A DNA stretch of 7,785 nucleotides from Candidatus Zixiibacteriota bacterium. Lineage in GTDB: Bacteria > SM23-81. A program made the position numbers and the translations under genes. The stretch covers positions 1-7,785 of the forward strand of contig DAOVRJ010000111.1 of assembly GCA_030628225.1 (NCBI GenBank), written 5' to 3'. The notes below the pieces were generated by a model. The model worked only from the letters and a program-made list of their open reading frames with translations. It was not told the DNA's origin and did not search any database. Positions 3 through 7,785 of this stretch are shown one piece after another. How positions within the stretch are numbered: position 1 is the stretch's first letter; every line of letters starts with the position of its first letter.

Positions 3-1160
3 ATCTTGCGGCCCGGTTCCAGCAACGCTTTTGGCCAGAAGATTGAGGTCTCCCACGGGAAGCTGGAGGAGTGCATTCAAAGTGTGGCCCGGGAGCTGGG
101 GAAAGGGACGGGTGAGGAATCTTCCCGGAAATCCTGCCAAAGAGTCCGCGGCACGGGGATCGCTGCCTTCATGAAATCTCCGATCATGGCCACGAACGCC
201 GCCTCATGTGCCGTCGTCAAGTTCAGCGAGGATGGCACCGTCAATGTTCTGGTGGGCTGTACCGAGATGGGCCAGGGATCCTTCACTGCCATCAGCCAGC
301 TTGCTGCCGAGACATTGAAGGTGCCCGTGGAGAAGGTGAAGATCAGCCGGATCATCGACACCGATACCAACCCATACGAGTGGCAGACGGTGGGCAGCAC
401 CACTACCTGGAAGGTGGGCAACGCCATCGCCCAGGCCGCCGGCAGGGCTATCCAGCAGATCAAGGAGATCGCCGCCCAGGTATGGGGCGTAAGCCCTGAG
501 GAGGTGGAGCACGGGCCGGAAAAGGTTTTTCTGCGAGGAAATCCCCAGAAATTCCTGCCTCTTTCCCGCCTGGCCATGGGCAGTCTGCAGTCCGATGGCC
601 AGGCCATTGGAGGGCCGGTGGTGGGATATGGCCGGTTTGTGCCCCAGGGGTTGACCTATCCCGATCCGCAGACAGGTCAGGGTAATCTGGCCGCAGAGTG
701 GACCTTCGGTTGTCAGGGGGCCGAAGTGGAGGTGGATCTGCGCACCGGAGAGATCCAGGTGCTGCGGCTGATCACCGCCGTAGATGCCGGAGTGATCGTC
801 AACCCGGTTCTGGCCCGGGGACAGGTGGTGGGAGCTATGGCCTACGGGATGGGAGCGGCCCTGAGCGAGAAGGTCATCTACTCCCCCGAGGGCCGGATTC
901 GCAACGACTCTCTGACCGATTATAAAGTGCCCACCTCAGGGGACGTGAGCGCGACCGAGTTCGTGGTTATCTTTCTGGAGACCCCCCTTCCGGACAGCGC
1001 TTATGGAGCCAGGCCGCTGGCCGAGCACGGCACCGTCTCGGTAGCTCCGGCCATCGCCAATGCCGTCAGCCATGCCGCCGGTATCCAGTTCTTCTGCTTG
1101 CCCATGACCGCCGATAGCGTGCTGGAGAAACGCCGGGCCAGGGAGGCTAAGGGATGCTGA
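3..1160 (+). CDS. Xanthine dehydrogenase-family molybdopterin-binding (large) subunit, 5'-truncated by window edge
   Basis: This is the C-terminal part, about 385 residues, of a molybdenum hydroxylase large subunit, the chain that binds molybdopterin cytosine or guanine dinucleotide and oxidises the substrate. The frame is open to the left edge, so the TTG at position 6 is not a real start; full-length family members run to roughly 750-800 residues. Family motifs visible in order are a TEMGQG segment whose Gln (codon 273-275) matches the Gln contacting the Mo oxo group in xanthine dehydrogenase, then PYEWQTV, then VDAGVIVNP, then GARPLAEHG followed by APAIANAV near the C-terminus. In that last motif the Glu (codon 1023-1025) matches the catalytic base of the GxGE motif, although the preceding Gly is Ala here. 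The stop overlaps the FAD-subunit start by 7 bp, implying translational coupling. The Mo-FAD-FeS order is that of E. coli xdhABC. The substrate cannot be read from sequence: xanthine, hypoxanthine, nicotinate or another N-heterocycle are all possible. Confidence 0.93.
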   Translation: MLRPGSSNAFGQKIEVSHGKLEECIQSVARELGKGTGEESSRKSCQRVRGTGIAAFMKSPIMATNAASCAVVKFSEDGTVNVLVGCTEMGQGSFTAISQLAAETLKVPVEKVKISRIIDTDTNPYEWQTVGSTTTWKVGNAIAQAAGRAIQQIKEIAAQVWGVSPEEVEHGPEKVFLRGNPQKFLPLSRLAMGSLQSDGQAIGGPVVGYGRFVPQGLTYPDPQTGQGNLAAEWTFGCQGAEVEVDLRTGEIQVLRLITAVDAGVIVNPVLARGQVVGAMAYGMGAALSEKVIYSPEGRIRNDSLTDYKVPTSGDVSATEFVVIFLETPLPDSAYGARPLAEHGTVSVAPAIANAVSHAAGIQFFCLPMTADSVLEKRRAREAKGC

Positions 1161-2014
1161 GGCCCTTCGATTACTATCGCCCCGCAGATATGGATGAGGC
1201 CCTGGCCCTTTTGGGCCAGGGGCCGGAAGCGGCTGTTTTGGCCGGGGGCACAGACCTGCTGGTCAAGATGAGACGAGACAGCCGGCGATCTCCGCTGGTT
1301 GTGGATATTAAAGGGCTGGAAGAGTGCCGGGGGATAGGTTGGGAGAATGAACATCTGTCGGTGGGAGCTCTGACCACCTTCAACGACCTGCTTGGCTCTG
1401 GGGAGATCAGGGAGCACTTTCCGCTGTTGATCGACGCCGCCCGGGTGATGGGTTGTTGTGAGATCCGCCAGCGGGCCACTCTGGGGGGCAACGTGGTTAA
1501 CGCCTCTCCCGGGGCCGAGTCGGGATCGCCTCTGGCTGTTCTCCAGGCCCGGGTGATCGTCAGGGGTCCGCAGGGCAGCCGCCAGATGCCCATAGAGGAT
1601 TTCTGGCAGGGAGTGGGAAAGACTGCCCTGTTTCCCGGGGAGCTGCTGACCCACGTCCTGATCCCCCGTCTGCCGCCAGGATCGCGAAGCGCCTATCTTC
1701 GGCGCAGCCGCGTTCGCGGAATGGACCTGGCCTCGGTCAACGTGGCCGTGGTGGTGATCAATCCTCAGGTCTCCAAAAACCGCCAGATACGCGTCGCCAT
1801 GGGAGCAGTGGCCCCGATGCCCCTCAGGGCCAGGAAGGTTGAGGCGATGTTGCGGGGTCAGGAGATCACGCCTGAGCTTTTGGCCGGAATGCGAGAGAAA
1901 ATCCAAGAGGGCCTGACCCCCAGGGTCACCAGCCTGCGAGCCTCGCCGGAGTATAAGAAAGAGATGGTTGCCGTTCTCACGGAGATGGCTTTGCAGCGTC
2001 TGCTGAAAAGGTGA
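1154..2014 (+). CDS. Molybdenum hydroxylase FAD-binding subunit (CoxM/XdhB type)
   Basis: This 286-residue protein has the usual length for a separate FAD subunit. It passes electrons from the Mo/FeS centres to NAD+ or another acceptor in the cytoplasmic hydroxylase complex. The N-terminal FAD domain shows AGGTDLLVKMR at residues 30-40 and IRQRATLGGN followed by VVNASPGAE at about 104-122, both diphosphate/flavin-binding signatures. The position usually occupied by Asp in the second motif (SPaAD) is Glu122. A YLRRSR segment begins the C-terminal CO dehydrogenase flavoprotein-like domain. The ATG lies inside the end of the upstream gene (shared ATGCTGA) with a GGGAGG ribosome site at 1141-1146. 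The start is well supported because the family begins only a few residues before the FxYxxP motif seen at residues 5-10. Expression is almost certainly coupled to the large subunit. CoxM-type subunits of CO dehydrogenase are similar, but the partner large subunit looks xanthine dehydrogenase-like. Confidence 0.95.
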   Translation: MLRPFDYYRPADMDEALALLGQGPEAAVLAGGTDLLVKMRRDSRRSPLVVDIKGLEECRGIGWENEHLSVGALTTFNDLLGSGEIREHFPLLIDAARVMGCCEIRQRATLGGNVVNASPGAESGSPLAVLQARVIVRGPQGSRQMPIEDFWQGVGKTALFPGELLTHVLIPRLPPGSRSAYLRRSRVRGMDLASVNVAVVVINPQVSKNRQIRVAMGAVAPMPLRARKVEAMLRGQEITPELLAGMREKIQEGLTPRVTSLRASPEYKKEMVAVLTEMALQRLLKR

Positions 2015-2021
2015 ATGATTC

Positions 2022-2489
2022 ATGAAGCATCTCATCAATCTGACGGTCAATGGCCAGAAGATGACGGTGGAGGTGGAATCCCAGCGCACCCTGTTGGAGC
2101 TGTTGCGCGATCAACTCAGTTTCACCGGCGTTAAGGAAGGGTGTGGTGATGGAGAGTGCGGCGCCTGCACCGTTCTGATGGATGGACAGCCGGTGCGCTC
2201 CTGCCTGATCCTGGCCGTGGAGGCTCAGAATACCGAGATCCTGACCATCGAGGGTCTGGCTGCCGGCGATGGGCTTCACCCTCTGCAACAGAGCTTCGTG
2301 AAAGAGGGAGCCGTACAATGTGGTTTCTGCACCCCGGGATTTATCCTGGCGGCCAAGGCCCTGTTGGACAGGCATCCCCATCCCACCGACCAGCAGATCC
2401 GCGAGGCCATGGGCGGCCACCTGTGCCGCTGCACAGGCTACGAGACCATCTTCCTGGCCATTAAAGCCGCCGGCAGCAAGCGCCGTTAA
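2022..2489 (+). CDS. Molybdenum hydroxylase [2Fe-2S] iron-sulfur subunit (CoxS/XdhC type)
   Basis: This 155-residue small subunit carries two [2Fe-2S] clusters that relay electrons from the molybdenum site to FAD. The N-terminal plant-type ferredoxin domain has Cys41, Cys46, Cys49 and Cys61 in the CxxxxCxxC...C pattern. The C-terminal helical domain has Cys100, Cys103, Cys135 and Cys137 (QCGFCTPG and HLCRCTGY). All eight cluster ligands are present and the length is normal, so the protein should be functional. The start ATG is 7 bp after the FAD-subunit stop, and an AAAAGGTGA ribosome site at 2006-2014 spans that stop, so the three subunits should be made from one message. No XdhC/CoxF-type cofactor insertion chaperone follows; it may lie elsewhere. 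The name XdhC is ambiguous because it also denotes that chaperone, so no symbol is given. Confidence 0.96.
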   Translation: MKHLINLTVNGQKMTVEVESQRTLLELLRDQLSFTGVKEGCGDGECGACTVLMDGQPVRSCLILAVEAQNTEILTIEGLAAGDGLHPLQQSFVKEGAVQCGFCTPGFILAAKALLDRHPHPTDQQIREAMGGHLCRCTGYETIFLAIKAAGSKRR

Positions 2490-2810: not shown

Positions 2811-3827
2811 GTGGAACTGGATCAGTTGTGGAAAAGAGGACAGGAGTTTCTGGGCGTGCGCATTCCCATCGTCTGTGGGGCCATGACCTGGATCTCGGAC
2901 AGCAGCCTGGTGGCGGCTGTCAGCAAGGCAGGGGCCTTCGGCAGTCTGGCTGCAGGCAATCTATCGGCGAAGATCCTGGAGAAGGAGATCGAGCTGACCC
3001 GGGAGTCCACTGACAAGCCCTTCGCCGTCAATCTCATCACTATCGCCCCAAATTATCGGGAACATCTGCGGGTGGTGGCCGCCCAACGCGTGTCGGTGGT
3101 CGTCTTCGCCGGCAGTTTTCCGCGGGCCTCCGAAATAGAGGAGGCCAGGAAGGCCGGCATCAAGGTGGTCTGTTTTGCTTCCAGCGAGTCCATCGCTCAG
3201 CGCATGATTCACAACGGGGCCGATGCCCTGATCCTGGAGGGAAATGAGGCTGGCGGACACATCGGTCAGGTCTCATTGGTGATCCTGCTCCAGCAGGTGC
3301 TGTTTCAGGTGGATGAAGTGCCCATCTTCGTGGCCGGCGGGATCGCCACCGGCCGTCTCATAGCCCACCTGCTTCTCATGGGGGCCTCGGGGGTGCAGCT
3401 GGGCACCAGGTTCGTCATGTCCCGGGAGTGCCGGGCTCACCCCAAATTCAAGGAGGCTTTTATCCGGGCCCGGGCGCGAGAGGCCGTGGCCAGTCCGGCG
3501 GTGAGCTCTGACCTGCACGTGGTGCCGGTGAGGGCCGTCCGCAACAAGGGCACCGAGGAGTTCGCCGATCTGCAGGTCGATTTGCTGCTGAAGCGGCGCC
3601 GGGGCCAGATCTCCCGGGCGGAGGCTCTGCGTCAGGTGGAGGAATATTGGATGGGTGCTTTGCGTCGGGCCGCCGTGGATGGGGATGTTCAGCGGGGTTC
3701 GCTGATGGCCGGACAGAGCGTCGGGCTGGCCAACCGCATCCAGCCTCTGGGGGAGATCGTCGGGGAGCTCGTCGTCGATGCGCAAAAGGAGCTGGATCGT
3801 GTCCGAAAAAAGCTGAGTGACCGGTGA
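2811..3827 (+). CDS. FMN-dependent 2-nitropropane dioxygenase-family protein (nitronate monooxygenase or FabK-like)
   Basis: This 338-residue TIM-barrel flavoprotein belongs to the family that includes nitronate monooxygenase and the enoyl-ACP reductase FabK. Visible hallmarks are RIPIVCGAM at residues 17-25 (first strand, flavin-contacting loop), GAFGSLAAGNL at 41-51, KPFAVNLI at 69-76, EGNEAGGHIG at 143-152 with the conserved active-site His150, FVAGGIATG at 173-181 and GVQLGTRFV at 194-202 (FMN phosphate binding). The C-terminus carries GSLMAGQSVG at about 296-305, common to FabK and many nitronate monooxygenase homologues. The length is typical and no ligand is missing. Sequence alone does not separate oxidation of nitronates from enoyl reduction or an uncharacterised role. 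The protein should be cytoplasmic; no signal peptide is seen. It follows the hydroxylase operon after a 321-bp gap, so co-transcription is uncertain. A 9-bp tandem repeat begins immediately after its stop codon. Confidence 0.88.
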   Translation: MELDQLWKRGQEFLGVRIPIVCGAMTWISDSSLVAAVSKAGAFGSLAAGNLSAKILEKEIELTRESTDKPFAVNLITIAPNYREHLRVVAAQRVSVVVFAGSFPRASEIEEARKAGIKVVCFASSESIAQRMIHNGADALILEGNEAGGHIGQVSLVILLQQVLFQVDEVPIFVAGGIATGRLIAHLLLMGASGVQLGTRFVMSRECRAHPKFKEAFIRARAREAVASPAVSSDLHVVPVRAVRNKGTEEFADLQVDLLLKRRRGQISRAEALRQVEEYWMGALRRAAVDGDVQRGSLMAGQSVGLANRIQPLGEIVGELVVDAQKELDRVRKKLSDR

Positions 3828-3872
3828 TTGAGTTGAGAGAGTTTAGAGAGTTTGGAGAGTTGAGAGAGTCTT
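3828..3872 (+). repeat. Tandem 9-bp repeat, five degenerate units
   Basis: Starting at the base after the flavoprotein stop, five consecutive nonamers read TTGAGTTGA, GAGAGTTTA, GAGAGTTTG, GAGAGTTGA and GAGAGTCTT. The core GAGAGT recurs exactly every 9 bases in the last four. The strand is purine-rich. No coding frame or known regulatory element explains it. Confidence 0.85.
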
Positions 3873-3932
3873 TTGAACTCGGAGCGTGGAGTTCGGAGCT
3901 GGGAACCTTTTGAACTCGGAGCGTGGAACGCC
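3870..3932 (+). repeat. GA-phased heptad array containing a perfect 21-bp direct repeat
   Basis: Units of 7 bp starting with GA follow one another from 3875 (GAACTCG, GAGCGTG and so on) for five units. There is then a 2-base slip and three more units from 3912. Positions 3870-3890 and 3907-3927 are an exact 21-bp direct repeat (CTTTTGAACTC... to ...GCGTGGA). The segment 3875-3906 matches the reverse complement of 3970-4001 at 23 of 32 positions without gaps, so the two could pair across the AT-rich spacer at 3933-3968. Confidence 0.85.
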
Positions 3933-3968
3933 ATCACACTTCTTTCCTATTTTACTTTAAGATTTTTC

Positions 3969-4117
3969 AGTTCCGAGCTCCACGTTCCGGACTCCGAGCT
4001 CATCGCTCGAATCTCGAATCTCGAGTCTCAAGTCTCAGGTTTCCAGGATCTAGGATCGGGGATGGGGGATCGGGGAATGGGGATCCAGTATCCAGAATCT
4101 AGAATCCAGTATCCAGA
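3969..4117 (+). repeat. Long in-phase heptad repeat array, consensus NNNTCNR
   Basis: Twenty-one consecutive 7-bp units run from 3969 to 4115 without losing phase. TC occupies unit positions 4-5 in 19 of 21. The units drift gradually, for example AGTTCCG near 3969, ATCTCGA at 4011 and 4018, GGATCGG at 4053 and 4067, GTATCCA at 4088 and 4109. A perfect 15-bp repeat (ATCCAGTATCCAGAA) sits at 4083-4097 and 4104-4118, exactly three units apart. The array lies between the flavoprotein gene and the phosphoesterase gene and ends about 60 bp before the phosphoesterase start. Confidence 0.88.
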
Positions 4118-4162
4118 AATCTTTCAAAATTCATGTGACGAGCCAGGTTTTTTCATCTTCTG

Positions 4163-4170
4163 AAAAGAGG
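4163..4170 (+). promoter_or_regulatory. Ribosome binding site that decides the phosphoesterase start
   Basis: AAAAGAGG lies 6 bases before the ATG at 4177, and translation from that ATG begins directly with a canonical signal peptide. The upstream in-frame GTG at 4135 would add 14 residues before the basic n-region and has no comparable ribosome site, so ATG 4177 is preferred. Confidence 0.7.
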
Positions 4171-4176
4171 TTGCTG

Positions 4177-6126
4177 ATGAGGAAGCTGATTCTGTCCACG
4201 GTTATTGTACTGGTAGGTTTCTGGGCCGCGGAAGCCTGGTCTCAATCCATGGAGCCCGTGGAGTGGGCCGCCGAGCAGATATTCTCTCAGCCACCCCGGG
4301 TGAAGGGCTTTCGCAAGGGGAAAGCTCTGCTGCATTTTACCACCGTCCGGTCCATGGCGGCCACCGTTCACTATGGCGCTTTTCCAGCCGACGAGGATCT
4401 GTGTCTGCCGGCATTTCGTTTTCGCACCAGGGCGAAAGAACTGGGCCCTGAAGGGGGCTATGAGGCCGAGCTCAATGTTTACAGGTTCGAATACGATACT
4501 TACAACATCGCCGGGGGATCTTCTCTGGAAGGGGTGGTGGCCTATCGAGTAGGGGTCATGGATGATGAGGAGGGAATCGTCCGCTATTTAGAGAGTCGTT
4601 TCCGATATATCAAGGGCGAGGGAGACCAGCGATTTCTCCGACCTTGCATCATCGAGGGTCCCCTGGTGGATCTGGTCACGGATCGCTCGGCAGTCATCTC
4701 CCTGGACGCCGACAGCTTATGCTTCGCCAGAGTTAGCCTGGGCGATCGCTTGATCCTCAGCCGTGACGGGCAGGGAAATCCCCTGAAGGTCCGGCATCAC
4801 GAGATTCAAATCTCAGACCTCAATCCCGCTACTCTGTATCTTTACCAGGCGGAGATCGCCGGCGATGACGATTTTCAGACGAGTCCCTTGGCCTGGCCGG
4901 AGCGGGCCTTCCAGACGGCTCCAGAGCCAGGATCGCGCAGACCTTTTTCCTTCGCCTACATGTCCGACAGCAGGCAATGCCCCGGGGGTGGGGAATTCGG
5001 TTTCGGCGGGGTCAACTATCGGATTGCCCAGCAGTTCATGGTGGACCTCTATCGTCGCGGCGCGGATCTGGTGCTCTTCGGGGGGGACCTGGTCAACGGA
5101 TACACCTCCAGCAGGGAGAGCTATCTCCGGCAGCTGCGCACCTGGAAGAAGGCTGTAGAGCCGGTGGGCTCTTTTATTCCCATCTACGAGGGTATGGGCA
5201 ATCACGAGCAGGTGGGTGATTACATTAAGGTGACTCTTCCCCAGAAGGAGCCGCTCACGCTCTATACCGACCGGGAGGGACAGGAAAGCGGGGAGGCCCT
5301 GTTCGCCGGCCAGTTCGTCAACCCCCGGGGGAGCGTTTATGGCTTCGGTCCCCCGCAGCCGGAGGATCAATGGCCGGGGGTGGGAAAGGATCTGCCGGTC
5401 TTTCCCAACCGGTGGGGGCTGCCCCATGAAAGGGGGCCCTCATATGATGAGACGGTCTATTCCTTCAATTTCGCCAACGTCCACTTCGTTTCCTTCAATA
5501 CCAATTACTGGTACACCGGGGTTTATTATGGTTCACACGAGGAAGTCAATATGGCCCTGGAGCTGGTGGGGGGTACCCGCGAGGGCTATATTATGGAAAA
5601 GCAGATGGCCTGGCTGAAGCGGGATCTGGGAGCCGCACAGCAGGACGGGGACATCGATTGGATCGTGCTCTTCGCCCACGAGCCGGCCTTTCCCAACGGG
5701 GGCCATCTGGGCGACGCCATGTTCTGGGGCCGGCGGGGGAAAGGGCATGAGGGTGGCATGAACGATCCCCGGGTGCCCTCCGGGGATGTGATCGACATGC
5801 GCAACCGGTTCTGGGGTCTGGTCAGCTCCTATTCCAAGACCTTGGTGGTCTTCTTCGGCGACGAGCACAACTACTCGCGGACTTTCATCGACAACTCGGT
5901 ACACCCGGATTTTCAATATCCCGTCTGGCAGATCACCTCCGGTGGGGCCGGAGCGCCTTTTTACGGACAGGACACCTCTGTTCCCTGGACAAAGCAGGTG
6001 AGAGCTTTTACCTCGGTGCCCCACTACTGTCTGCTGACCGTCCAGGGGAGACTGGTCGAGTTGGAGGTCTGGACCCGCACAGGCCGGCTGGTGGAGCGGA
6101 TCGTCCTCTCGGACCTGCCCCGGTAG
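4177..6126 (+). CDS. Secreted metallophosphoesterase, purple acid phosphatase-like
   Basis: This 649-residue protein opens with a signal peptide (MRK n-region, hydrophobic residues 4-18, likely cleavage after AWS at 20-22), so it should act outside the cytoplasm. Residues about 45-235 look like one or two fibronectin-type beta domains, the second resembling the N-terminal domain of purple acid phosphatases. The catalytic domain follows the calcineurin-like order: SDSR (Asp264), GGDLVNG (Asp304), GNHE (Asn342, His343), FAHEP (His501) and GDEHNYSR (Asp562, His564). It ends with SGGAGAPFYG, as in phosphatases of this kind. The expected activity is hydrolysis of phosphate mono- or diesters at a two-metal site. 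Two ligands differ from the usual pattern: the first motif has Arg where DxH enzymes have His, and GHxH is GDxH. About 100 residues between GNHE and FAHEP include an insertion rich in Gly and Pro. It is flanked by repeat-bearing intergenic DNA on both sides and is probably a separate transcription unit. The substrate is unknown. Confidence 0.85.
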   Translation: MRKLILSTVIVLVGFWAAEAWSQSMEPVEWAAEQIFSQPPRVKGFRKGKALLHFTTVRSMAATVHYGAFPADEDLCLPAFRFRTRAKELGPEGGYEAELNVYRFEYDTYNIAGGSSLEGVVAYRVGVMDDEEGIVRYLESRFRYIKGEGDQRFLRPCIIEGPLVDLVTDRSAVISLDADSLCFARVSLGDRLILSRDGQGNPLKVRHHEIQISDLNPATLYLYQAEIAGDDDFQTSPLAWPERAFQTAPEPGSRRPFSFAYMSDSRQCPGGGEFGFGGVNYRIAQQFMVDLYRRGADLVLFGGDLVNGYTSSRESYLRQLRTWKKAVEPVGSFIPIYEGMGNHEQVGDYIKVTLPQKEPLTLYTDREGQESGEALFAGQFVNPRGSVYGFGPPQPEDQWPGVGKDLPVFPNRWGLPHERGPSYDETVYSFNFANVHFVSFNTNYWYTGVYYGSHEEVNMALELVGGTREGYIMEKQMAWLKRDLGAAQQDGDIDWIVLFAHEPAFPNGGHLGDAMFWGRRGKGHEGGMNDPRVPSGDVIDMRNRFWGLVSSYSKTLVVFFGDEHNYSRTFIDNSVHPDFQYPVWQITSGGAGAPFYGQDTSVPWTKQVRAFTSVPHYCLLTVQGRLVELEVWTRTGRLVERIVLSDLPR

Positions 6127-6415
6127 GGAGATGGGAGAGGTTCCTTGCTCGAAGTTCGTTGAAAAATTCGAGATTCGTGGAAAACCTGATGGCAATAGCA
6201 ATGGCAGGAGGTAAAGAGATCAGAGATCAGGGGAAGGAACGTGTTCGTGGGGAAGGAACTGAAGATTGAGGATTTTAGATTTGCTCAGCCTTTCCTCGAA
6301 CCTCGAATCTCGCTCTTACCAGTCTCCAGTCTCTCGCCTCTGCTCTTCCCGAACCCCGGTTATCTTACGATTAACGATCAACGATTGACGAGTCTCGGTT
6401 TTTCAAGGAGACGGG
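6127..6415 (+). repeat. Intergenic region with heptad-phased repeats upstream of the deaminase
   Basis: From 6216 to 6285 ten 7-bp words follow in phase, including GAGATCA twice (6216, 6223) and a run ACTGAAG, ATTGAGG, ATTTTAG, ATTTGCT. GGGGAAGGAAC occurs at 6230-6240 and 6249-6259. From 6295 the orientation changes to TC-rich words: CTCGAAC at 6295, CTCGAAT at 6302, CTCGCTC at 6309, then AGTCTCC and AGTCTCT at 6321 and 6328. Four 7-bp steps TTACGAT, TAACGAT, CAACGAT, TGACGAG follow at 6365-6392. Phase is less strict than at 3969-4115. The 6127-6215 part holds only scattered TTCGNNG words. I see no gene and no clear promoter; any promoter for the deaminase must lie within or before this repeat DNA. 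Confidence 0.7.
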
Positions 6416-7660
6416 ATGGATCTGATCATCAGAAACGCGCAGTTGCGCCACACGGAAGACACTTGCGATATCGCTATTTCCGCGGGCAAGATCGTGGAGA
6501 TCGCCGCCAAAATCTCCCGCAAAGGCCAGCAGGAGATCGACGCCCGGGGCCGGCTGACCACGCCCACATTCATCGATCCGCACCTGCATCTGGACAAGGC
6601 TCTGATCAGCGAGGTGGTCCGGCCAAACCTCTCCGGCACCCTGGGCGAGGCCATCGAGATCATCTGGGAGAAGAAGAGGAAGTACACCGTCCAGGATATA
6701 GTGGAGCGGGCCAGCCGGGTGTTGCGCTGGGGCATCGGCCATGGAACCACAGTCTTCCGGACTCATGTGGATGTGGATACCATCGGCGGGCTGGTTCCTG
6801 TGCAGGCCCTTGTGGAGGTCAAAAACCGGTTTTCCGGCTGCTGTCAGATTCAGATCGTGGCTTTCCCCCAGGAGGGTATTCTCCAGGACCCGGGAGCTGA
6901 GAAGCTTTTGCGGCAGGCCATGAGCGAGGGAGCGGATGTGGTGGGGGGCATGCCCTTCAACGAGCGAACCGAAGCAGATTCTCAAGAACACATCGAGATC
7001 TGCTTTGAGATCGCCAGGGAGTTCGGGGCCGATATCGACATGCACGTGGACGAGACGGACGACCCCGCTGCCCGAACCTTGGAGCTTCTGGCCGCCAGGA
7101 CCATCCGGGAGGGCTACCAGGGACGGGTGACGGCCGGCCACACCTGCGCGCTGGCCGCTTACGACGATGCCCACGCCGCCGAGGTCATCGCTCTGGTCAA
7201 AGAGGCGGGCATCAACATGATCACCAATCCGGCCACCAACCTGATGCTGCAGGGCCGTCTGGATAAAGAGCCCAGAAGACGGGGCATCACCCGGGTCAAG
7301 GAGCTGCTGAGCGCAGGGATCAACGTTTGCTACGGGCAGGATTGCCTCAAGGACACCTTCTATCCCACCTTTGGCCGGGCCGACCTGCTGGAGGTGGGCC
7401 TGATCACCGCCCACGCCGCGCAGATGAGCCTGCCCAAGGAGATCGAGACCCTCTTCGATATGCCCACCGTCAACGCCGCCCGGGTCCTTCGGCTGGATGA
7501 CTACGGCATCCAGGTGGGCAAGACGGCCGACCTGAACATCATCGACACCCCCACGGTGCAGGAGGCCTTCCGCACCCAGGCCGACCGGCGGTATGTCATC
7601 CGCAGGGGGAAGGTTATTGCAGAGACGAGGACGAGGACGGAATTGAGGATTGTAGAGTAG
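6416..7660 (+). CDS. Cytosine deaminase (CodA)-like amidohydrolase with altered substrate pocket
   Basis: This 414-residue member of the amidohydrolase superfamily is alignable by eye with E. coli cytosine deaminase over its whole length. Metal and catalytic residues are present: HLH at His56/His58, the FPQEGI motif with Gln152, DMHVDET with His210 and Glu213, GHT with His242, and Asp309. Further family segments are FRTHVDV at 115-121, NPATNLMLQGR at 271-281, RRGITRVKELL at 288-298 and LDDYGIQVGK at 360-369. Where CodA reads GHDDVFDPW, this protein reads GQDCLKDTF (307-315), so the position of CodA Asp314 is Cys310, the preceding His is Gln308 and the Trp is Phe315. It should deaminate a cytosine-like ring in the cytoplasm, but the pocket points away from plain cytosine. 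AAGGAG at 6405-6410 lies 5 bases before the ATG. The last codons are repeat-like DNA. No permease or regulator is adjacent in the window. Creatinine or other N-heterocycle deamination remains possible. Confidence 0.9.
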   Translation: MDLIIRNAQLRHTEDTCDIAISAGKIVEIAAKISRKGQQEIDARGRLTTPTFIDPHLHLDKALISEVVRPNLSGTLGEAIEIIWEKKRKYTVQDIVERASRVLRWGIGHGTTVFRTHVDVDTIGGLVPVQALVEVKNRFSGCCQIQIVAFPQEGILQDPGAEKLLRQAMSEGADVVGGMPFNERTEADSQEHIEICFEIAREFGADIDMHVDETDDPAARTLELLAARTIREGYQGRVTAGHTCALAAYDDAHAAEVIALVKEAGINMITNPATNLMLQGRLDKEPRRRGITRVKELLSAGINVCYGQDCLKDTFYPTFGRADLLEVGLITAHAAQMSLPKEIETLFDMPTVNAARVLRLDDYGIQVGKTADLNIIDTPTVQEAFRTQADRRYVIRRGKVIAETRTRTELRIVE

Positions 7661-7768
7661 AGATTAGGGAAAAGAAGAACCGATCCTGGTTAAAGGCCGA
7701 GATTCGAGACTGGAGATTCGAGACTCGAGGAATTACTGGGAACCGGGGTTCGGGATCCGGGATTCGTA
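7642..7768 (+). repeat. Heptad repeat array overlapping the 3' end of the deaminase gene
   Basis: Four 7-bp words (ATTGAGG, ATTGTAG, AGTAGAG, ATTAGGG) run through the stop codon at 7642-7669. After about 30 bases of ordinary sequence, ten in-phase units occupy 7699-7768. They begin GAGATTC, GAGACTG, GAGATTC, GAGACTC, and end with words in CGGG (AACCGGG, GTTCGGG, ATCCGGG). GAGATTCGAGACT is exactly duplicated at 7699-7711 and 7713-7725. ATTGAGGATTGTAG here matches ATTGAGGATTTTAG at 6265-6278 at 13 of 14 positions. The array probably continues beyond the window. Confidence 0.8.
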
Positions 7769-7785
7769 AAGGCAAAGTTCAACTG

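What the first reader, a model, noticed from the sequence alone, without database searches (positions are those of the whole stretch)
7334..7363. Deaminase lacks the CodA Asp314 discriminating residue
Metal ligands and catalytic Gln, Glu, His and Asp are intact, but the loop reads GQDCLKDTF instead of GHDDVFDPW. From established work, CodA Asp314 excludes 5-substituted cytosines, and CodA homologues lacking this Asp include bacterial 5-methylcytosine deaminases. Cys310 here, with Gln308 and Phe315 as further changes, suggests 5-methylcytosine, 5-substituted cytosine or another ring amine as substrate. If so, the gene would be mis-named by simple homology transfer.
Basis: partly seen in the sequence, partly recalled or inferred. 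Interest (0 to 1): 0.62.

Follow-up and report, generated by a model that had tools for sequence, protein, structure and literature searches.

The report
Unassigned deaminase in pyrimidine-breakdown operon
A gene that would be auto-named "cytosine deaminase" belongs to a large untested branch of that enzyme family, and its pocket and gene neighbours suggest that it feeds an anaerobic pathway which breaks the pyrimidine ring apart, rather than acting as an ordinary cytosine or 5-methylcytosine deaminase.

Summary
Window 7334-7363 encodes GQDCLKDTFY, and Cys310 aligns with CodA Asp314. Metal ligands and catalytic Gln/Glu/His are intact. These form a clade apart from both CodA and the Klebsiella 5-methylcytosine deaminase. 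Lys61 (CodA Thr66) matches AtzC Lys65, which binds the extra ring oxygen of ammelides. The Klebsiella enzyme has Ala, Gln, Ser, Trp at positions 66, 312, 314, 319; this clade has Lys, Gln, Cys, Phe. Neighbours are a xanthine-dehydrogenase-type hydroxylase (in the window), AllF/AllG carbamoyltransferase subunits (apparently the same operon, on another contig), a PF04199 hydrolase, CodB, and uridine phosphorylase in relatives. In Pseudomonadota a cyanuric-acid/barbiturate ring opener sits directly downstream. Best reading: an aminohydrolase that makes a fully oxygenated ring (barbiturate, or cyanurate in Pseudomonadota) for ring opening and carbamoyl-phosphate recovery. The substrate is inferred, not shown. 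5-methylcytosine remains possible but is not favoured; plain cytosine is a serious rival. New variant of a known kind.

The parts
6416..7660 (+). CodA/AtzC-type amidohydrolase (deaminase-like), 414 aa, GQDC/HLDK subfamily
7334..7363 (+). active-site loop G307-Y316 GQDCLKDTFY (CodA 311-320 GHDDVFDPWY)
7343..7345 (+). Cys310 codon, the CodA Asp314 position
   Evidence: invariant 82/82
7340..7342 (+). Asp309 codon, metal ligand / catalytic base (CodA Asp313)
7337..7339 (+). Gln308 codon (CodA His312; Gln also in the Klebsiella 5-methylcytosine deaminase)
7358..7360 (+). Phe315 codon (CodA and Klebsiella Trp319)
6596..6598 (+).
6581..6589 (+). metal ligands His56 and His58 (HLH)
6869..6871 (+). 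Gln152 codon (CodA Gln156, binds the substrate oxygen)
3..1160 (+). molybdenum-hydroxylase (xanthine-dehydrogenase-type) large subunit, C-terminal part, cut by the contig start; clade XDH1
1154..2014 (+). FAD subunit of the same hydroxylase
2022..2489 (+). 2Fe-2S subunit of the same hydroxylase
2811..3827 (+). NMO/FabK-like flavoprotein, also between hydroxylase and deaminase in the sister genome
4135..6126 (+). Metallophos-domain protein (663 aa), also next to the deaminase in the sister genome; role unclear

Best explanation
The gene encodes a mononuclear-metal aminohydrolase of the CodA/AtzC type, in an untested subfamily marked by HxHLDK ... GQDCxxDxFY. It keeps the CodA catalytic machinery: metal on His56/His58/His210/Asp309, and Gln152, Glu213 and His242 for attack on the amino-bearing carbon and release of ammonia. 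Most likely its substrate is a 4-amino six-membered ring that already carries a second ring oxygen at the cytosine C6 position. That oxygen would be held by Lys61, with Cys310 removing the Asp charge that CodA places there. The product would be a fully oxygenated ring: barbiturate in the window's lineage and other anaerobes (6-oxocytosine = 6-aminouracil made by the adjacent hydroxylase), or cyanurate from ammelide in Pseudomonadota. The ring would then be opened (PF04199 hydrolase in anaerobes, AtzD-family enzyme in Pseudomonadota). In anaerobes the ureido acid would be split by an AllFGH-like carbamoyltransferase to carbamoyl phosphate, giving ATP through carbamate kinase. Shown here: sequence, clade, pocket residues, gene order and co-occurrence. 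Inferred: the substrate, the order of hydroxylation and deamination, and the ring-opening assignments.
For: (1) Lys61, invariant in the clade, is AtzC Lys65, which hydrogen-bonds the extra ring oxygen of the docked substrate beside residue 304, the CodA-314 position (PMC4577212). No sampled member of the CodA/5-methylcytosine side has Lys there. (2) The clade is separate from CodA plus the Klebsiella 5-methylcytosine deaminase. (3) Own genome: hydroxylase subunits are upstream of the gene on the same strand; contig C25 carries AllF-like and AllG genes followed by residues 1-284 of the hydroxylase large subunit, and the window begins at residue 392 of the same protein, so they read as one operon. 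A PF04199 hydrolase and carbamate kinase are elsewhere in the genome. (4) AllG in 40 of 50 GQDC genomes vs 7 of 88 background genomes without a CodA-family gene. (5) AtzD-family ring openers occur in 10 of 50 genomes; the 37 genomes with a strong PF04199 match have none. The two replace each other while the deaminase is constant. (6) In Rhodospirillaceae L056 and L064 a GHDS-type deaminase, the GQDC enzyme and AtzD lie in tandem with gaps of about 35-60 bp, so the GQDC enzyme precedes ring opening and is not redundant with the GHDS type. (7) Two hydroxylase clades coexist in many genomes: XDH1 with this deaminase (CodB in part), XDH2 with uracil permease/cyclase/AllFGH.
Against: No activity was measured. 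AtzC K65A is faster on ammelide (PMC4577212), so Lys is not required for that chemistry. Elusimicrobia with this gene lack a close XDH1 or XDH2 homologue, so a hydroxylated substrate is not explained there. CodB and uridine phosphorylase neighbours also fit cytosine to uracil. The AtzD partners tested match the cyanuric acid model, so the product would differ between lineages. In 35 of 50 genomes this is the only CodA-family gene at E 1e-40.
Confidence: 0.4

Rival explanations
1. Plain cytosine deaminase (cytosine to uracil) of a divergent clade, feeding uracil to a neighbouring uracil-hydroxylating molybdoenzyme.
For: Catalytic set identical to CodA; closest solved structure is CodA (Z 57.1, rmsd 1.9); CodB-type cytosine permease over cut-off and uridine phosphorylase over cut-off as neighbours; only CodA-family gene in 35 of 50 genomes.
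Against: Thr66, Asp314 and Trp319 all replaced and fixed; Anaerotruncus genomes also hold a true CodA with GHDD; a tandem second CodA-like deaminase beside AtzD in Rhodospirillaceae; a dedicated second hydroxylase clade would be superfluous where XDH2 serves uracil.
Confidence: 0.27
2. 5-methylcytosine (or other 5-substituted cytosine) deaminase making thymine, with the adjacent hydroxylase acting on thymine and methylmalonyl-CoA as a late intermediate.
For: Loss of Asp314; Ser at this place in the Klebsiella 5-methylcytosine deaminase and 5-methylcytosine activity of CodA with this Asp changed to Ala (PMC6186785); Gln308 shared; methylmalonyl-CoA-decarboxylase-like subunits near AllG in Halanaerobiales; a dedicated hydroxylase.
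Against: Separate clade from the Klebsiella enzyme, with Lys66 and Phe319 instead of Ala and Trp; AtzD-family ring opener as partner in Pseudomonadota; a GHDS-type enzyme, more like the 5-methylcytosine type, sits beside it in some operons.
Confidence: 0.13
3. Ring-opening cyclic amidase: the enzyme itself hydrolyses barbiturate (bound as an anion by Lys61) to ureidomalonate; no deamination.
For: Lys61 would suit the anionic trioxo ring; malonate, part of the barbiturate skeleton, binds AtzC through the equivalent Lys65 (PMC4577212); the operon has hydroxylase and AllF/AllG; some anaerobic clusters carry a uracil rather than a cytosine permease.
Against: AtzD ring openers sit directly beside it in Pseudomonadota, which would be redundant, and a PF04199 hydrolase is present in nearly all genomes without AtzD; the intact Gln152/Glu213 set is that of aminohydrolases.
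Confidence: 0.12

Closest known systems
E. coli cytosine deaminase CodA (PDB 1K6W, 3O7U)
   Same: Fold (Z 57.1, rmsd 1.9 over 411 residues), 41% identity, all metal ligands and catalytic Gln/Glu/His/Asp
   Different: Thr66 to Lys, His312 to Gln, Asp314 to Cys, Trp319 to Phe; separate clade; below the NCBIfam cut-off (364 vs 483 bits)
Klebsiella pneumoniae 5-methylcytosine deaminase Kpn00632 (PDB 4R7W, 4R85, 4R88)
   Same: Fold (Z 55.8), 39% identity, Asp314 lost, Gln at CodA position 312
   Different: Ser not Cys at 314, Ala not Lys at 66, Trp not Phe at 319; groups with CodA, not with this clade
AtzC, N-isopropylammelide isopropylaminohydrolase (PDB 4CQB, 2QT3)
   Same: Fold (Z 53), Lys at position 66, non-acidic residue at 314; in Pseudomonadota the GQDC gene lies just upstream of an AtzD homologue, the step where AtzC acts in atrazine breakdown
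   Different: 34% identity; AtzC has Asn304 and His219 where this protein has Cys310 and the CodA-type Glu213; not in the GQDC group of the tree
NCBIfam NF005748 (PRK07572) 'cytosine deaminase' subfamily
   Same: Best family model, 436.2 bits over the full length
   Different: Just below the curated cut-off of 438; a family name says how members are annotated, not that the function was tested
E. coli AllFGH oxamic transcarbamylase (pathway partner)
   Same: AllF/AllG/AllH homologues adjoin or accompany the deaminase
   Different: E. coli AllFGH works on oxalurate in allantoin breakdown (PMC11326118); here ureidomalonate, one CH2 longer, is proposed but untested

Membership tests
Amidohydrolase superfamily, mononuclear deaminase type (CodA/AtzC side) | HxH, His and Asp metal ligands, catalytic His and Gln after strand 3 | tested here: met
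   His56, His58, His210, Asp309, His242, Gln152; AF2 model pLDDT 96 with CodA, Klebsiella enzyme and AtzC as top structures
Cytosine deaminase CodA (NF006685) | Score over curated cut-off of 483 bits | tested here: not met
   364.3 bits
Cytosine deaminase CodA (NF006685) | Pocket residues Thr66, Asp314, Trp319 | tested here: not met
   Lys61, Cys310, Phe315
PRK07572 cytosine deaminase subfamily (NF005748) | Score over curated cut-off of 438 bits | tested here: not met
   436.2 bits, a near miss
Klebsiella-type 5-methylcytosine deaminase | Asp314 replaced by a small non-acidic residue | tested here: met
   Cys310 here, Ser in the Klebsiella enzyme
Klebsiella-type 5-methylcytosine deaminase | Groups with Kpn00632 in a tree | tested here: not met
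   Kpn00632 groups with CodA; the query lies in a separate group
Klebsiella-type 5-methylcytosine deaminase | Deaminates 5-methylcytosine efficiently | not testable with these tools
   needs an enzyme assay
AtzC N-isopropylammelide hydrolase | Lys65 / Asn304 pair holding the extra ring oxygen | tested here: inconclusive
   Lys61 present, Asn replaced by Cys310
AtzC N-isopropylammelide hydrolase | Same clade as AtzC | tested here: inconclusive
   AtzC does not join the 37-row GQDC group, but it is a long branch
AtzC N-isopropylammelide hydrolase | Acts directly upstream of an AtzD-type ring opener | tested here: inconclusive
   Yes by gene order in Pseudomonadota; no AtzD found in the window's own genome

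The most novel reading that the evidence does not exclude
The GQDC enzyme and its XDH1 partner form an undescribed cytosine branch of an anaerobic, energy-conserving pyrimidine pathway: hydroxylation at C6, deamination to barbiturate, ring opening by a PF04199 hydrolase, phosphorolysis of ureidomalonate by an AllFGH-like enzyme to carbamoyl phosphate, then malonyl-CoA decarboxylation, in some lineages by a sodium-pumping enzyme. It would occur in many bacterial phyla and in archaea.
Probability: 0.3. Interest if true: 0.72.

Novelty: new variant of a known kind. Interest (0 to 1): 0.5.

Why it matters
A widespread subfamily named 'cytosine deaminase' by homology probably does something else, in genomes where it belongs to a pathway that conserves energy from pyrimidines without oxygen. 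I found no paper in the held library describing that anaerobic route (most subscription journals are not held). The case also warns that the CodA Asp314 rule alone does not predict 5-methylcytosine deaminases: position 66 and gene context matter too. The candidates, including cultured Anaerotruncus colihominis DSM 17241 and Lutispora saccharofermentans, make the substrate question directly testable.

Tried and rejected
Lys61 co-varying with an Asp partner (AtzC Lys65-Asp127): rejected, that Asp is conserved in every enzyme sampled. Cys310 as sequencing error or private mutation: rejected. Cys314 as a unique mark of this clade: rejected, it also occurs with Ala/Ser66 and Trp319 in Rhizobium/Azospirillum/Rhodovulum enzymes. 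Uridine phosphorylase in the window's own genome: not found, though present beside the gene in the sister genome. AtzD-family ring opener in the own genome: not found. The Hitchcock 2014 paper on the Klebsiella enzyme is not held, so its content is taken from PMC6186785 and from the PDB sequence; that Rsp0341 and NCgl0075 were also 5-methylcytosine deaminases is my own recollection. PMC12828455 tested two uncharacterised CodA-cluster proteins that use only its 'compound 15', but neither the compound's name nor the sequences could be obtained, so whether they belong to this clade is unknown.

Full report
OBSERVATION. The window holds one CodA-like gene, 6416-7660 (+), 414 aa. Positions 7334-7363 read GQDCLKDTFY, and Cys310 (TGC, 7343-7345) lies where E. 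coli CodA has Asp314 in every alignment made. Asp309 fills the metal-ligand place of CodA Asp313, so no other Asp takes over position 314. Metal ligands (His56, His58, His210, Asp309) and catalytic Gln152, Glu213 and His242 are intact.

IT IS A SUBFAMILY. Eighty relatives from species-level genomes (about 53-83% identity), with the query and one further copy, all have Gln308, Asp309, Cys310, Asp313 and Phe315 (82 of 82). One search pattern contained GQDC, so I checked for bias. Relatives found by whole-genome protein search (G001, G097), a plasmid-borne Haloarcula protein at 49.6% identity and 22 of the 29 CodA-family loci examined from a profile search of 50 genomes also carry K and C. The other 7 have Thr, Ala or Ser at 66 with Trp319, and Asp, Ser or Cys at 314. 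Record titles span many bacterial phyla and archaea. The closest is candidate division Zixibacteria SM23_81, at 83%.

PLACE AMONG KNOWN ENZYMES. An AlphaFold2 model (mean pLDDT 96.2) matches CodA (Z 57.1, 41% identity), the Klebsiella 5-methylcytosine deaminase (Z 55.8, 39%) and AtzC (Z 53, 34%). In a maximum-likelihood tree the GQDC rows plus Haloarcula form one group (91/84), separate from a 13-row group (100/99) that holds CodA, the Klebsiella enzyme and the rhizobial GHDC enzymes. AtzC is on a long branch and its position is uncertain. The protein misses both relevant NCBIfam cut-offs (436.2 vs 438 and 364 vs 483 bits).

POCKET. In CodA numbering, positions 66/312/314/319 are T/H/D/W in CodA, A/Q/S/W in the Klebsiella 5-methylcytosine deaminase, K/S/N/W in AtzC and K/Q/C/F here. 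The AtzC crystal and mutagenesis paper names Lys65, Asn304 and Trp309 as the counterparts of CodA Thr66, Asp314 and Trp319, and docks the extra ring oxygen of isopropylammelide between Lys65 and Asn304 (PMC4577212). That oxygen maps to cytosine C6 (my inference from the ring geometry described there). So Lys61 suggests a substrate with an oxygen at C6. Cys314 also occurs in a CodA-side group with Ala/Ser66 and Trp319; Cys alone is not diagnostic.

GENE CONTEXT. In the window the gene follows a three-subunit xanthine-dehydrogenase-type hydroxylase, an NMO-like flavoprotein and a Metallophos-domain protein. The hydroxylase large subunit is cut at the contig start. Contig C25 of the same genome carries an AllF-like gene, AllG, and then the first 284 residues of a protein 79% identical to the Zixibacteria large subunit; the window piece covers residues 392-776 of the same protein, also at 79%. 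The parsimonious order is allF - allG - hydroxylase - flavoprotein - Metallophos - deaminase. About 107 residues lie in the contig gap, so the join is inferred. Elsewhere in the genome are a PF04199 cyclase-type hydrolase beside a second hydroxylase (C13) and carbamate kinase (C219). Among 81 neighbourhoods the commonest partners are hydroxylase subunits (22, 18 and 15 loci), AllF (13), AllG (11), PF04199 hydrolase (11), CodB cytosine permease (11, representative over cut-off), uridine phosphorylase (9, over cut-off) and AtzD-family ring openers (9).

GENOME-LEVEL TESTS. AllG is in 40 of 50 GQDC genomes; excluding the own genome this is 39 of 49 against 7 of 88 background genomes without a CodA-family gene (Fisher p about 8e-18, not corrected for phylogeny or for the different taxon sampling). 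The PF04199 hydrolase is in 40 of 50. AtzD-family ring openers are in 10 of 50 and in none of the 37 genomes with a strong PF04199 match. The two look like replacements for one another, with the deaminase constant, which argues that the deaminase is not itself the ring opener. In two Rhodospirillaceae (L056, L064) a GHDS-type deaminase, the GQDC enzyme and AtzD are in tandem with gaps of about 35-60 bp: two non-redundant deaminases, the GQDC one immediately before ring opening. The four further AtzD partners scanned, like the first, pass the cyanuric acid amidohydrolase model. Hydroxylases fall mainly into XDH1 (beside this deaminase, CodB in part) and XDH2 (beside cyclase, AllFGH and uracil permease), and many genomes, including the window's, have both. 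A third, more distant hydroxylase type accompanies the deaminase in some Clostridia. Near AllG in Halanaerobiales are methylmalonyl-CoA-decarboxylase-like, biotin-carrier and sodium-pump decarboxylase subunits; near AllG in Tissierellales and Lutispora is a family III CoA-transferase, in Tissierellales also a carbon-nitrogen hydrolase. These fit malonate or malonyl-CoA as the end of the route.

MECHANISM. Shown: intact catalytic set, distinct fixed pocket, gene order and co-occurrence. Inferred: the enzyme replaces an exocyclic amine by oxygen on a ring that already has a C6 oxygen, giving barbiturate (anaerobes) or cyanurate (Pseudomonadota), which is then opened; in anaerobes the ureido product would be phosphorolysed by an AllFGH-like enzyme (E. 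coli AllFGH does this with oxalurate, PMC11326118). Rivals are plain cytosine deamination, 5-methylcytosine deamination and direct barbiturate hydrolysis. Main gaps: no assay; Elusimicrobia with the gene lack a close XDH1 or XDH2; in 35 of 50 genomes it is the only CodA-family gene.

VERDICT. Real and correctly read residue change; the 5-methylcytosine reading is not favoured; the protein is an untested, widespread variant of the CodA/AtzC type embedded in what looks like an undescribed anaerobic pyrimidine-opening pathway.

Noticed in passing
7654-7785 of the window: Intergenic sequence rich in GAGATTCGAGACT-type units matches about 40 other places in the same genome: a dispersed intergenic repeat family. 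Similar-looking sequence lies by eye at about 3830-4000 and 6130-6400.
   Followed up: partly
L169, L186 (Halanaerobiales); L167, L168, L184 (Tissierellales, Lutispora and a Clostridiales): AllFGH/cyclase clusters in anaerobes include, by lineage, sodium-pump decarboxylase, biotin carrier, family III CoA-transferase, carbon-nitrogen hydrolase and uracil permease: an apparent complete anaerobic pyrimidine-to-malonyl-CoA gene set.
   Followed up: partly
L023, L024, L025: In unclassified bacteria an aldehyde ferredoxin oxidoreductase-like gene stands directly upstream of the deaminase; two of these genomes have no XDH homologue at E 1e-40.
   Followed up: partly
L056, L064: Tandem GHDS-type and GQDC-type CodA-like deaminases followed by an AtzD-family ring opener and an amidase in Rhodospirillaceae.
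   Followed up: partly
L077: A contig in a record titled Klebsiella pneumoniae (MAG TH-11nov19-3) carries a GQDC gene that groups with a Betaproteobacteria MAG; probably a mislabelled or contaminated MAG.
   Followed up: no
L110, L113, L105, L106, L116: A second family with Cys at the CodA-314 position (Ala/Ser66, Trp319) on Rhodovulum, Azospirillum and Rhizobiaceae plasmids, often with ABC transporters: better candidates for 5-substituted cytosine deaminases than the window gene.
   Followed up: no
window 4135-6126: Metallophos-domain protein of 663 aa kept between hydroxylase and deaminase in two Zixibacteria-type genomes; no reason for its place is evident.
   Followed up: no
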